DNA of 64,000 nt from an uncultured Amphritea sp. (GTDB lineage Bacteria; Pseudomonadota; Gammaproteobacteria; Pseudomonadales; Balneatricaceae). The stretch spans positions 58,668 to 122,667 of the forward strand of contig NZ_CAKZLP010000011.1 of assembly GCF_937127095.1 (NCBI RefSeq), read 5' to 3'. The notes beneath the pieces were generated by a model. The model saw nothing but the letters and a program-made list of their open reading frames with translations. It searched no databases and was not told the origin of the DNA. The translations under genes and the position numbers were made by a program. Of the stretch, positions 58,761 to 64,000 are shown piece after piece (positions within the stretch are counted from its first letter, which is position 1; each line of letters begins with the position of its first letter).

Positions 58761-59483
58761 ATGGGAAGAAAGTTTGAAGTACGTAAGGCTTCCATGGCTA
58801 AGACTCAGGGAGCTAAATCCAAGGTATATGCCAAGTATGGCAAAGAGATCTATGTAGTTGCCAAAAACGGTGGTGTCGATCCAGAGGGTAATCTTTCCCT
58901 GCGTCGTCTCATCGAAAAAGCCAAAAAAGATCAGGTGCCTGCCCACGTTATCGAAAAAGCGATCGACAAGGCTGCAGGCGGCGGTGGTGAGGATTTCCTG
59001 CCAACCCGTTATGAGGGTTTTGGTCCCGGTGGCTGCATGGTTATCGCTGATTGCCTGACCGATAACAACAACCGTACCTTTGGTGATGTCCGGGTTGCTT
59101 TCAATAAAGGTAAGGCAAAGCTCGGCGGTCAGGGCACCGTTGCCCATATGTTCGATCACCGTGCAGTGTTTGTTTTCCCCCACGACGATGAGGATGAGGT
59201 CCTTGAGTTGCTGATGGAAGCGGATGTTGATGTGGCAGAGATCGAGAGTGAAGACGGCAATATCACTGTCTACGCGCCGCATACTGACTTCTTCAAGGCG
59301 AAAACCGCACTGCATGAAGCGTATCCGGATCTTGAAGTAGAGGTAGAGGAGATTACTTTCATCCCTCAGACCTACACTGAGCTGGCCGGTGAAGATCTTG
59401 AACAGTTTGAGACCTTCTTAGAGATGCTGAACGACGTAGAAGACGTTCAGGAGGTCTATCACAACGTTGAGATGCCTGATTGA
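58761..59483 (+). CDS. YebC/PmpR-family protein (YeeN type)
   Basis: 240 aa; [40 protein letters not shown]. Confidence 0.9.
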
Positions 59484-59509
59484 TTTTAGGTTTTACTTCG
59501 TTAGATAAG

Positions 59510-59541
59510 AAAGACTGATGTGGGAACATCGGTCTTTTTTT
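59510..59541 (+). terminator. intrinsic terminator
   Basis: AAGACTGATGTGGGAACATCGGTCTTTTTTT. Confidence 0.75.
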
Positions 59542-59558
59542 ATGGGGCTAAGAAAAGG

Positions 59559-59628
59559 AAGTGGCTAGATCGCGGCTTCGCCGCTGCTAGTGGTTAGAAC
59601 GTCGCTGCGCGACTGGCTAGAAAAAGCA
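59559..59628 (+). repeat. BIME/REP-like compound hairpin repeat, copy 7
   Basis: AAGTGGCTAGATCGCGGCTTCGCCGCTGCTAGTGGTTAGAACGTCGCTGCGCGACTGGCTAG. Confidence 0.8.
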
Positions 59629-59990
59629 AAGATTCAGAGCGGTTAGGGCTTCGATTATTCTTTGATGTCGAATCGCGACAATTTTACAGTTTATTTTATT
59701 TTGCTCTGCGGTTATGCTCAGATTATCGTTAGATAAGGGCTTGTTTTGCTGCTTGATGAGTTAGCAAAACGTCAGAAAAACAAAGGGATAGGTTGAAACG
59801 CTGGCGGGATACTACGCCGGGTCAGGAATGCAACTGCGCATTCTCGTTTTTGTCTTAAAGGAGATTGCGATGTCAGTTTTTTCCTCTTTATTATCTGATA
59901 GTTAGTATATCTTTAGTAAATTCAGCCTGGCATGCATATGCGCCGGCGTAGTATTAAGATGTTATGCACTAAGTGCCGGAGAACGAATAT

Positions 59991-60848
59991 ATGAGTGAAA
60001 CTGCAGGCACAGTGATCAAGCTATTGTCCGCTTTGACCTCACCAAAAGCTTCAGTCAAATACTTATCAGTGGGTATTTTTCTTGTGCTTTCGTGGAAGTA
60101 TCTCGATAACACTCTAGCTTCTTTGGACGCGCCAAAAGAGCATCATAGCCTCATAGTGTTGCTAATTGGGCTTGGCATAGGATCTCTTATTGGACAGGCC
60201 ATTTATGTTGTAGTTTCTTCAATATGGAAAAAAATTGATACTTCCATCAAAGAGAAGAAAGAAAAGCAGAGAAAAGACGAATTAGAGAAAGCTCAACAAC
60301 GATCAGTTGATCAAGAAAATGAAGAGTTTCTAGAGGGGTTCAAAAAAGCATTTGAACATTTCCCTTATTGGAAAAGGGATGCCCTTAGACTACTTATAGA
60401 TAAGGAACAAAGAATGGAGTGGAGTTTAGATTATGTAAACTCTCTCAAAACCAACAAATATATTCTTCGCACCATAAATATTGATAGTGATACTGATCTC
60501 TATAAAATTCATCCCGCAATCCGAGACTATGTAAAGGCCCAGTGGAAAGCTGAGATAGATTCAAATATGGCAGATTTTTTCGGAAACCTAACGCCAGAGA
60601 AAAATGAATTAATTGAAGTTATGAAGTTTACTGAAGAAGAGTTTAAAGGCCCAATTAGTCAAGCCTGCGCAGATTTGGTATATCCGATACATCCTTGCTT
60701 CACTAGGGAAGCTGAAGACGAGATTGGATTTTACATTTCATTTCGGAATCCGTACTGCAGCCTATTTAATGAAAAAACTGGCCTAGAGCTCATAGATGAG
60801 GTTTATATTAAGCATAGTTGGGTCCGCAGTGAAGATGTGAGCGCATGA
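59991..60848 (+). CDS. cassette ORF 1: SieB-like (superinfection-exclusion-like) membrane-anchored protein
   Basis: ATG at 59991 with GGAG upstream; two N-terminal TM segments, charged linker, C-terminal domain (KYILRTINIDSDTDLYKIHPAIRDYVKAQW); family assignment tentative. Confidence 0.5.
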   Translation: MSETAGTVIKLLSALTSPKASVKYLSVGIFLVLSWKYLDNTLASLDAPKEHHSLIVLLIGLGIGSLIGQAIYVVVSSIWKKIDTSIKEKKEKQRKDELEKAQQRSVDQENEEFLEGFKKAFEHFPYWKRDALRLLIDKEQRMEWSLDYVNSLKTNKYILRTINIDSDTDLYKIHPAIRDYVKAQWKAEIDSNMADFFGNLTPEKNELIEVMKFTEEEFKGPISQACADLVYPIHPCFTREAEDEIGFYISFRNPYCSLFNEKTGLELIDEVYIKHSWVRSEDVSA

Positions 60849-60852
60849 AAAT

Positions 60853-60948
60853 GCATAACAAAGCCAAGCACGATCCCCAGCAAAGCTGGCTGGACCTACA
60901 TTCCGCTGCTTCGCAGCTCCATTACGGCCCGTGTTGGCGGCGTTAGAT
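60853..60948 (+). other. attC-like integron recombination site
   Basis: R'' GCATAAC, L'' CCAAGCACG pairing with L' CGTGTTGG with one unpaired base, R' GTTAGAT (GTTRRRY); internal hairpin GCTGCTTCGCAGC. Confidence 0.82.
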
Positions 60949-60964
60949 TTACAAGGAGAATAGC

Positions 60965-61936
60965 ATGACTTCAGTCGGAGGGATCGAGCTCCATTACTAC
61001 CTTGAAGATGGCGAGCACTCCATGGATGCTGTTCTTCGCAATCGTTGTGAGGCTGAATTACTCGCTATTTTTCAGGAGGTTGCCTTTACTCTTGGGTTAC
61101 CTGTTCAGATTGATGCACAAGCGCTTGCAGAAGGTGGCTTGAGAGAGATTTGGACATGGGCAGGAGAGAATTCTGGGCAGTTGAGTATTGTTCTCTCCGT
61201 TGTGGCTATTCTTGTCTCCCTTGCACCACAGATATACGAATCAGAGGAAGAGGCGCTCAGCAAAGAATTAACAGAGCTCAGTATTGAAGAAAAAAGACTT
61301 CAGATTGAAAAGTTGCGCCAAGAATTACGTGAAATCGAGTCCAGAACTGAGAATGCTACACGAGATAACGCCGTTCACTTGTTGAAGAAAGAACCCAAGA
61401 TAGTAGTCAGAAGGTCGAACTTCTACAAAAACCTAAGTGATCGTGATGACGTAGAATCAATCGGAATTTCACCTCTAGACAAAAATCTCAAACCTTTTTC
61501 CCCAGAAAGAAATGTTCCTAAGGAGCGATTTCACGATTTCATACTGACTTCGCATTCGATAAAGCCTTTGATCATCGAGAACGCCAATATTGAAGTTGTT
61601 AGCCCTGTATTGAGAGAGGGTCGGTATAAGTGGAAAGGGATTTATGACGAGCAGGTTATTGGTTTCACAATGCAGGATGCAGCTTTTCAACACCAAGTGT
61701 TAAGGGAGGAAATCACCTTTCAGCATGGTACGTTTTTAGAGTGTGTTCTCAACGTTTTTAGAAAGCTCGATGAGGTTGGTGAGGTTGAGATAACCGGATA
61801 TGTTGTGACAACTGTAATTCGTAAATATGACGAAAGGCAGTCGATCGAGACTCCGCAAGGAAAGAGTTATAAGCATGCTCAGAAATTGCGAGCCTCCCAA
61901 TCAGACCTATTCCGAGACGGCATACAAGAAATCTAA
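60965..61936 (+). CDS. cassette ORF 2: hypothetical protein, single TM plus coiled coil
   Basis: 323 aa; LSIVLSVVAILVSLAPQIY TM followed by ELTELSIEEKRLQIEKLRQELREIESRTE. Confidence 0.75.
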   Translation: MTSVGGIELHYYLEDGEHSMDAVLRNRCEAELLAIFQEVAFTLGLPVQIDAQALAEGGLREIWTWAGENSGQLSIVLSVVAILVSLAPQIYESEEEALSKELTELSIEEKRLQIEKLRQELREIESRTENATRDNAVHLLKKEPKIVVRRSNFYKNLSDRDDVESIGISPLDKNLKPFSPERNVPKERFHDFILTSHSIKPLIIENANIEVVSPVLREGRYKWKGIYDEQVIGFTMQDAAFQHQVLREEITFQHGTFLECVLNVFRKLDEVGEVEITGYVVTTVIRKYDERQSIETPQGKSYKHAQKLRASQSDLFRDGIQEI

Positions 61937-61963
61937 CCAGTGCAGGCAAGTTAAAGAATCAAT
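61931..61963 (+). other. truncated attC left half
   Basis: ATCTAAC perfectly matches RYYYAAC, overlapping the ORF stop; no R' partner follows before the palindromic element. Confidence 0.5.
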
Positions 61964-62036
61964 GGGGTCAGGTCTTGCATTTTGCAGGATTGAGAAAATT
62001 GGATGAACTCTCGTGCAAAATTCAAGACCTGCCCGC
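61964..62036. mobile_element. palindromic MITE/REP-like element, copy 1
   Basis: GGGGTCAGGTCTTGCATTTTGCA ... TGCAAAATTCAAGACCTGCCC; about 75-80% identical to copy 2 in the interior by eye, near-identical arms. Confidence 0.85.
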
Positions 62037-62040
62037 GGGA

Positions 62041-62103
62041 TTTCTTGACATCAATGAGAATATGGATCGGGTTTGCGGAATTATTGAGTCATGGAATAGT
62101 TAA
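62041..62103 (+). pseudogene. possible 3' remnant of a cassette ORF
   Basis: Open frame FLDINENMDRVCGIIESWNS* directly before attC; no start codon, upstream replaced by the palindromic element. Confidence 0.4.
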
Positions 62104-62104
62104 A

Positions 62105-62176
62105 ATGTAACAAGCGCATGTTGTCGGACTGCTTTCCCGCTGCGCTTCAAATCAGCGGCAAGTGAGGGCGTTATAG
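62105..62176 (+). other. attC-like integron recombination site
   Basis: ATGTAACAAGCGCATGTTGTCGGACTGC...CCGCTGCGCTTCAAATCAGCGGCAAGTGAGGGCGTTATAG; TAAC...GTTA cores, CCGCTG/CAGCGG stem. Confidence 0.82.
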
Positions 62177-62178
62177 CC

Positions 62179-63099
62179 ATGAAGAGACATGAGTTTTGGC
62201 GGCATGTGTATCGCCAGAATAGATATATGGAATATCTTTCTCAAGAAGACCTTGAGTCAAGGACGAGGGATATTATTACAAATATGATGACGCTATCTGA
62301 CAAGGGTCAGATAAGCTTACATGGTCTCAACGACGTGGGTGAATACTGGATGATTAAATGGACCCATGTTTTAGAAGAGTTCCAAATAAGATATGGGCCT
62401 TACCCCAATGGCTTTACGAATGGATTCCTGAAAAAAGCCTCTATTGTTAACCCTTCATTCCCATCTCCTCCCAAAGCTAAAGATGCCATTGAGAAGATAG
62501 GCGGCATTCCTGATGGCGCTTTATTTAAATTTGGGAAAGCTGAACATTTAGATGATATGTATCGCAAAGGTAGCATAAGGATCGCTCCAGCCTCTTACTA
62601 TGATGATCCTTCGTTAAATAGTGCAATTAGAGATGATGAGCTTTCATTTACTGTTCAAGCTAAGCCGGAGTCTGTACAAATTAAGAACAATAAGGGTGAT
62701 GAAATAAAACCCAAAGGCAATGTCAGTTTTACCATTGAGAGCACAACTAACTATTATGTCTCTTGCTTTGCGCAAAAATATACGTTCAGGGAATATGATG
62801 ATTTTGAGGCTGACGCATGCATTGTTATTCGGGAGCCTGGGATTTTCATCGAAAGAATGATTCACTCGCTCGAAGCAGGTGTATCAGACTTTACAGGGTA
62901 TGCTGCGCCGGTTAAGTATATTGATCCCCTAGTTGCTAAATCTAAAGATGTAGAAGTATTTATTTCTAAACATTTTCGGTATGCGTATCAAAACGAATTT
63001 AGAATTATTTGGCTCCCAGAGAAACAAGTAAAGAAGCTGGATGCCCTTTTCATAAACATAGGGAGTATGGAAGATTATTCCGATATCATCCATGTATAA
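62179..63099 (+). CDS. cassette ORF 3: hypothetical protein, weak DUF2971-like layout
   Basis: 306 aa; LFKFGKAEHLDDMYRKGSIRIAPASYYDDPS, YYVSCFAQKY, FRYAYQNEFRIIWLPE. Confidence 0.65.
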   Translation: MKRHEFWRHVYRQNRYMEYLSQEDLESRTRDIITNMMTLSDKGQISLHGLNDVGEYWMIKWTHVLEEFQIRYGPYPNGFTNGFLKKASIVNPSFPSPPKAKDAIEKIGGIPDGALFKFGKAEHLDDMYRKGSIRIAPASYYDDPSLNSAIRDDELSFTVQAKPESVQIKNNKGDEIKPKGNVSFTIESTTNYYVSCFAQKYTFREYDDFEADACIVIREPGIFIERMIHSLEAGVSDFTGYAAPVKYIDPLVAKSKDVEVFISKHFRYAYQNEFRIIWLPEKQVKKLDALFINIGSMEDYSDIIHV

Positions 63100-63120
63100 C
63101 AAAGCCAGCCAGGAAAATTA
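63094..63120 (+). other. truncated attC left half
   Basis: GTATAACAAAGCCAGCCAGG, sharing ATAACAAAGCCA with the attC at 60853; no R' box follows. Confidence 0.55.
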
Positions 63121-63153
63121 GGGGCAGGTCTTATGATGCGCGGTGAAAAAATT

Positions 63154-63226
63154 AGGGTCAGGTCTTGCATTTTGCAGGGTTAAAAAAATTGGATTTACTC
63201 TCGTGCAAAATTCAAGACCTGACCCC
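63154..63226. mobile_element. palindromic MITE/REP-like element, copy 2
   Basis: GGGTCAGGTCTTGCATTTTGCA ... TGCAAAATTCAAGACCTGACCCC, arms differ at one position over 22 bp. Confidence 0.88.
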
Positions 63227-63264
63227 AGGATCCATGCGCAAGACCTGACCCCAGGATCCATGCG
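63213..63264. repeat. 26-bp exact tandem duplication including the element end
   Basis: (CAAGACCTGACCCCAGGATCCATGCG)x2. Confidence 0.95.
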
Positions 63265-63314
63265 GGATCCAGCTGACCCCGGGATTACATTTTTATCGAA
63301 AATAGGCAGTTTTT

Positions 63315-63756
63315 ATGACAATATCGTTTGAAACCCAAAGGTTGAAAGTGGATGAAGTTTCAGGTGAGCTAGCTTCGGTTGAGCGCTCACTTCTGCTTGA
63401 ACAGATACCTAAAATTCTAACGCCATTAGTTGTTAAAAACTTACCTCCATATTTTCATGGTATTACTTCCAGTGAATTGGCGGGAATCTGGCTTGACCGA
63501 ATGTTGTTGGATAGTCGGTTACTTCAAGTAAAATCCGAGGCGCATAAGTTAATCGGTTTTCTGTTCGCCTATGTAGAAAACGAAAGTGATGCGCATATAG
63601 GTTACTTACTCACTGAAAAATGCTGGGGCAAAGGACTGGCGAGTGAACTACTGCAAACCTTTATAGTAGAAGTGGCTAAGGTTGAGTCATGGTCAAAGCT
63701 TATTGGTGGTGTTGACGTATCTAATGATGCTTCTGCTAACTTGCTTAAAAAGTTAG
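63315..63756 (+). pseudogene. GNAT-family acetyltransferase interrupted near the 3' end by an IS5-family element
   Basis: HIGYLLTEKCWGKGLASELLQTF acetyl-CoA motif; frame runs into the IS end at LLKKLG. Confidence 0.8.
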
Positions 63757-64000
63757 GGAAGTTGCGAATAAGTCCCTCCTCTTGAGACAATCTGCGATGC
63801 AACCTTCTCAGAGATAAGCCATGGATCATCAACTTACTTTCGCCGACAGCGAGTTCAATCAAAAGCGCAGAATAACCCGTAAAGAGATCTTTCTCGGACG
63901 CATGGATAATCTCATACCCTGGCAGCGTCTTGAGAAGATTATCACACCGCATTATCCCAAAGCGGGCAAGGGTCGTCAGCCATATCCACTCTCTACGATG
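63757..64000 (+). mobile_element. IS5-family insertion sequence, left part (continues past window)
   Basis: Left end GGAAGTTGCGAATAAGTCCC preceded by TTAG (fits YTAR target); transposase starts at 63821. Confidence 0.88.
63821..64000 (+). CDS. IS5-family transposase, N-terminal 60 codons
   Basis: [60 protein letters not shown]. Confidence 0.92.

What the first reader, a model, noticed from the sequence alone, without database searches (positions are those of the whole stretch)
61931..63226. Same palindromic element sits inside two different truncated attC sites: possible attC-targeting element
A 73-bp element with ~22-bp terminal inverted repeats (GGGGTCAGGTCTTGCATTTTGCA...TGCAAAATTCAAGACCTGACCCC) occurs twice, at 61964 and 63154. 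Both times it lies just downstream of an attC left box (R'' at 61931 and 63094) whose right half is missing. At the second site a fragment of the element's left end (GGGGCAGGTCTTA at 63121) begins 27 nt after the R'' start; at the first site the element begins 33 nt after it. Two junctions at nearly the same position in unrelated cassettes suggest targeting of the attC stem. Folded single-strand DNA is a plausible target for an HUH/Y1 (RAYT-type) transposase acting in trans. Group IIC-attC introns and IS1111-attC elements are the known precedents for attC targeting.
Basis: partly seen in the sequence, partly recalled or inferred. Interest (0 to 1): 0.85.

Follow-up and report, generated by a model that had tools for sequence, protein, structure and literature searches.

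The report
Miniature transposons breaking integron recombination sites
Two copies of a 73-base hairpin-forming parasite, whose likely transposase (single-strand, Y1/TIRYT type) sits elsewhere in the same Amphritea-like genome, have each broken an integron recombination site; related copies do this in several genera more often than chance, but they also land downstream of ordinary genes, so they do not look specific for such sites.

Summary
Two 73-bp palindromic elements (61964-62036, 63154-63226) each follow an attC left half (R''+L'') whose right half is gone. An orthologous cassette in another family carries a complete attC, so the first site probably was intact once. The genome encodes one intact cognate enzyme: a Y1 transposase with a C-terminal HTH, bounded by the same palindrome (contig C66:5124-6045). 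Its features match the known TIRYT / TnpA_REP subclass 2.1 (ends GGGGWSAS), so the window elements are best read as its non-autonomous miniatures.

Across the family's genomes, 17 of 64 element loci have attC sites within 4 kb, against 1 of 40 random windows and 2 of 38 DDE-IS loci. R'' boxes are over-represented next to element ends and R' boxes are not. Orientable array copies almost all point the same way as the cassettes.

Strict attC targeting is not supported. Most copies lie outside arrays, the insertion point varies widely, some array copies sit in cassette ORFs, and non-array copies also sit close downstream of genes. Best reading: a REP-like, 3'-of-gene miniature that accumulates in cassette arrays and inactivates attC sites. 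Loss of the right half remains unexplained.

The parts
61964..62036 (+). Element copy 1: 73-bp palindromic non-autonomous TIRYT-type element; right end decayed
63154..63226 (+). Element copy 2: 73-bp palindromic element with intact right end
61931..61948 (+). attC left half (R''+spacer+L'') of the 60965-61936 cassette; rest of the attC missing
   Evidence: aligned with the complete attC of the orthologous cassette in L220
61949..61963 (+). 15-nt stretch of unknown origin between attC left half and element 1
   Evidence: alignment end
63094..63112 (+). attC left half (R''+L'') of the 62179-63099 cassette; rest missing
   Evidence: matches the start of an intact attC in L074
63121..63133 (+). 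Tandem-duplicated fragment of the element's left end
   Evidence: same pattern at C60, L075, L077, L041, L102, L141
63238..63252 (-). Tandem-duplicated fragment of the element's right end
   Evidence: (C11:121905-121919)
62037..62106 (+). 3' tail of a truncated cassette ORF, followed by its attC
   Evidence: sequence reading, (inference)
60853..60948 (+). Complete attC site
   Evidence: attC scan
62105..62176 (+). Complete attC site
   Evidence: attC scan
60965..61936 (+). Cassette ORF, 323 aa, LAPAL_fam similarity just below the cut-off; orthologue in G044 has a complete attC
62179..63099 (+). Cassette ORF, 306 aa, no family match
63315..63785 (+). Cassette ORF, GNAT acetyltransferase
59973..60848 (+). 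First cassette ORF of the array, 291 aa, no Pfam match

Best explanation
The 73-bp elements are non-autonomous, MITE-like dimers of the terminal palindrome of a TIRYT (TnpA_REP subclass 2.1, Y1/HUH) element. They are probably moved in trans, through folded single-stranded DNA, by the Y1 enzyme encoded at C66:5193-6041. The family inserts, like REPs, mostly in non-coding DNA just downstream of genes, and it accumulates in integron cassette arrays, perhaps because several autonomous copies themselves sit in arrays and because cassettes are dispensable. In an array the first tens of bases after a stop codon are the attC site, so insertion there leaves R''-L'' and inactivates the attC. Shown: the anatomy, the cognate enzyme, the array enrichment, the R'' association, the co-orientation, and an intact homologous attC for copy 1. 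Inferred: mobilisation in trans, the single-strand route, local spread, attC inactivation, and loss of the right halves by recombination or deletion next to the element.
For: Cognate enzyme: Y1_Tnp E=1.2e-16 plus a C-terminal HTH_28 (Bac_DnaA_C-like) domain, with the same palindrome at both ends, the right one overlapping the gene's 3' end. This fits the published TIRYT / subclass 2.1 definition: GGGGWSAS ends and an HTH tail (PMC3733652; PMC6006769). Array enrichment: 17/64 element loci versus 1/40 random windows (p=0.001) and 2/38 DDE-IS loci (p=0.008). R'' motif in element flanks 14 versus 4.7+-2.1 in shuffles; R' motif 6 versus 6.3. attC left-half junctions in the window, Amphritea atlantica (L043/L075), G317, G350, G351, G356 and G357. 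Non-array copies within 100 bp of a gene on their left-end side follow co-oriented genes (10 versus 3 opposed, counted by hand). Autonomous copies in or beside arrays in G295, G318 and G323.
Against: A preference for attC over other non-coding DNA inside arrays was not separated from a plain 3'-of-gene preference by a formal test. Right-half loss is not predicted by a simple insertion. No transposition was observed. Copies within one array, and G350/G356, are not independent.
Confidence: 0.68

Rival explanations
1. The Y1 enzyme recognises the folded attC hairpin itself as a target (attC targeting), possibly exchanging the distal attC hairpin for the element hairpin, which would explain why R''-L'' stays and the rest goes.
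For: R''-side asymmetry; homology of the first cassette ends right after L''; 15 of 16 orientable array copies co-oriented with attC (my reading); at L103a the next cassette starts exactly at its TTRRRY core and in C60 an intact GTTAGGG follows the element.
Against: Junctions at very different attC positions; C60 and other array copies in ORFs; most copies not in arrays; the same 3'-of-gene placement outside arrays.
Confidence: 0.15
2. No insertion preference at all: autonomous copies happened to be caught in arrays, and IntI shuffling plus homologous recombination between copies spread the palindromes among cassettes and made the mismatched flanks.
For: Autonomous copies in or beside arrays in G295, G318 and G323; element copies in one array have flanks from unrelated attC sites (L103, L107); tandem end duplications.
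Against: G000's autonomous copy has no attC nearby, yet at least 3 of its 5 long copies are in two separate arrays; array copies in genomes where the enzyme was not found (G317, G321) still sit at attC or behind a stop codon.
Confidence: 0.15
3. The elements are ordinary parts of gene cassettes, acting as surrogate attC sites or terminators.
For: They sit where attC should be and fold well.
Against: The related cassettes carry normal attC sites without the element; the same element occurs outside integrons.
Confidence: 0.02

Closest known systems
TIRtrons / TIRYT (TnpA_REP subclass 2.1)
   Same: Y1 transposase with HTH tail, GGGGWSAS ends, dispersed paired palindromes in the genome
   Different: The two papers read here do not mention integrons (term search); association with cassette arrays and attC disruption not described there
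IS1111-attC elements (ISKpn4, ISPst6)
   Same: Mobile element found at attC sites
   Different: Those are DEDD transposons guided by a seekRNA to one end of attC; here a Y1 family, 73 bp, variable position, left half kept and right half lost
Group IIC-attC introns
   Same: Use attC-type hairpins and occur in arrays and CALINs
   Different: Retroelements in a defined TTGT/T site, usually opposite to cassettes; here co-oriented DNA elements
REPINs / BIMEs with RAYTs
   Same: Short palindromic dimers downstream of genes, with a single-copy Y1 enzyme
   Different: No GTAG tag; TIR-type ends

Membership tests
TIRYT / TIRtron (TnpA_REP subclass 2.1) | Y1_Tnp (HUH/tyrosine) catalytic domain in the partner gene | tested here: met
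   PF01797, 61.4 bits, cut-off 23; HYH motif visible in the translation
TIRYT / TIRtron (TnpA_REP subclass 2.1) | C-terminal HTH (HTH_23, HTH_28 or Bac_DnaA_C) | tested here: met
   HTH_28 over cut-off; HTH_23 and Bac_DnaA_C below theirs
TIRYT / TIRtron (TnpA_REP subclass 2.1) | Flanking TIRs with GGGGWSAS, also dispersed in the genome | tested here: met
   GGGGTCAG at the left end and GGGGTCAA (last base off consensus) at the right end of C66:5124-6045; GGGGTCAG at most dispersed copies
TIRYT / TIRtron (TnpA_REP subclass 2.1) | Phylogenetic placement of the enzyme in subclass 2.1 | not tested
   No tree was built; placement rests on domains and ends only
TIRYT / TIRtron (TnpA_REP subclass 2.1) | Enzyme acts on the palindrome | not testable with these tools
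   Needs biochemistry
GTAG-type REP/REPIN | GTAG tetranucleotide at the palindrome end | tested here: not met
   Ends are GGGG
IS1111-attC | DEDD transposase and insertion at one fixed attC position | tested here: not met
   Partner is Y1; positions vary
Group IIC-attC intron | Intron RNA with reverse transcriptase, opposite to cassettes | tested here: not met
   73-bp non-coding elements, co-oriented; no group II intron match in 59000-64000 with Rfam

The most novel reading that the evidence does not exclude
A Y1/TIRYT single-strand transposase uses folded attC sites as preferred targets and replaces the distal attC hairpin with its own palindrome, freezing cassettes in integron arrays: a third, mechanistically different class of attC-directed mobile DNA.
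Probability: 0.15. Interest if true: 0.8.

Novelty: new member of a known kind. Interest (0 to 1): 0.5.

Why it matters
Both integrons and Y1 elements work through folded single-stranded DNA. A miniature element that repeatedly destroys attC sites would be a natural way to lock cassettes in place, turn arrays into clusters without mobility, and seed recombination between cassettes. It also gives TIRYTs, whose dynamics are little studied, a tractable natural target set.

Tried and rejected
A genome-contig scan for complete elements found only two records, and a DNA search of 295 order genomes found none outside G000, so a family-wide pattern search was used instead. A first attC scanner that forced pairing through the spacer failed on known sites and was replaced. 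Rfam gave only weak miRNA hits to the palindrome, below the gathering scores. No solved-structure relative of the enzyme by sequence. The plasmid collection held one marginal 30-bp hit. A simple attC pattern count was too noisy for genome-wide totals. A shared left-flank tetranucleotide ([GC]AA[CT] before GGGG) was seen in many copies but not tested statistically. The elements as surrogate attC sites: disfavoured by intact homologous sites.

Full report
Observation. The window holds two 73-bp imperfect palindromes at 61964-62036 and 63154-63226, with strong single-strand hairpins. They lie in a small cassette array after clpX and yebC: cassettes at 59973, 60965, 62179 and 63315, and complete attC sites at 60853-60948 and 62105-62176. 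The only integron integrase over the family cut-off in this genome is on another contig, C60:203525-204466, so within the sequence available the window array has no adjacent integrase; the contig ends with the window.

attC halves. Each element follows an R''-L'' half without a partner. For the first, a cassette 86% identical at protein level in genome G044 (another family of the same order) ends in a complete attC (ATCTAACCAGCGCAGGCACGG...GCGGGCGTTAGAT). Nucleotide homology with the window runs through R'' and L'' and stops at 61948; the next 15 nt and the element replace the rest. For the second, the 18 nt TATAACAAAGCCAGCCAG also begin an intact attC in L074. So complete attC sites were probably present, and the alternative that the cassettes never had them is contradicted for copy 1.

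Identity. The genome carries long copies at C60:197799 (in the integrase-bearing array), C32:88 (beside an attC-like right part at a contig end) and C40:82547, besides the two in the window, and shorter partial copies. One intact autonomous copy, C66:5124-6045, encodes a 282-aa Y1 transposase with a C-terminal HTH, with the palindrome at both ends. Published TIRYTs have GGGGWSAS inverted repeats, a Y1 domain and an HTH tail, and their repeats occur singly or as dimers in genomes (PMC3733652; PMC6006769). The fit is good; the 73-bp copies are best called TIRYT miniatures, although no tree of the enzyme was built. The host is inferred to be Amphritea: the element locus L043, titled Amphritea atlantica DSM 18887, has the same sequence around the element as locus L070 of G295, which is in the same genus as G000.

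Distribution. A pattern search of 117 family genomes found matches in 26. I fetched about 4-20 kb around nearly all of them and scanned with an attC finder written here (R''/R' boxes, L-box pairing). It found attC within 4 kb of 17 of 64 element loci, against 1 of 40 random 8-kb windows and 2 of 38 loci of DDE insertion sequences from the same genomes (Fisher p=0.001 and 0.008). The R'' motif occurs in the 80 nt outside element ends 14 times against 4.7+-2.1 in shuffles; the R' motif 6 against 6.3. These counts include related copies (G350/G356), so the p values are guides. The random windows came from five genomes, and one IS locus beside an element copy was left out of the IS control.

Junctions. 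Clear attC left halves adjoin the element in the window (2), A. atlantica (L043/L075), G317, G357, G351, and G350/G356. Distances from the AAC of R'' to the element are about 26, 20, 33, 31, 19, 38, 59 and 77 nt (G317 has AAT in place of AAC). In G350/G356 one attC is kept up to the R' region, compared with intact attC sites in other genomes. In C60 a relative in G388 shows that the element removed the end of the ORF and the whole attC left side. In G318, G351 (C13) and G352 copies lie in cassette ORFs. By my reading, 15 of 16 array copies with a definable direction are co-oriented with the cassettes; some of these are related copies.

Interpretation. Outside arrays the element also tends to follow gene ends: within 100 bp, 10 co-oriented upstream genes against 3 opposed, counted by hand, an observation and not a planned test. 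In a cassette that place is the attC. A REP-like 3'-of-gene habit together with array enrichment therefore explains most of the picture without attC recognition. Why arrays are enriched is open; three genomes carry the autonomous element in or beside an array, which allows local spread. Why the right half is lost is unexplained: recombination between copies, deletion, or hairpin replacement all fit. At L103a and C60 the next cassette keeps its start, which fits replacement within the attC.

Known precedents. IS1111-attC elements use a seekRNA and hit one end of attC; group IIC-attC introns use the bottom-strand hairpin and usually face the other way. My searches for RAYT, TIRYT or MITE together with integrons or attC found no report of this association, within an open-access library only.

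Verdict. Real and more frequent than chance; a new member of a known element kind in a habitat I found no description of; strict attC targeting remains a minority hypothesis.

Noticed in passing
L080:779 and 7828, L082:104 (genome G303): An IS110-like insertion sequence (one copy read: DEDD_Tnp_IS110, below cut-off) appears to abut three differing copies of the palindrome at the same point of its left end, as if it targets this palindrome.
   Followed up: partly
window 63121-63176 and 63213-63252; C60:197878; L075:8310; L077:4251; L041:3525; L102:4922; L141:3953: Tandem duplication of an element end together with some flanking bases recurs at many copies; origin unknown.
   Followed up: partly
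window 63821-64000: Open frame at the contig end that looks like an IS5-type transposase N-terminus from memory; no Pfam match on 60 aa.
   Followed up: partly
C60:203525-204466 (L025): Single integron integrase of the genome over the family cut-off, with about 5 kb before the first clear attC of its array.
   Followed up: no
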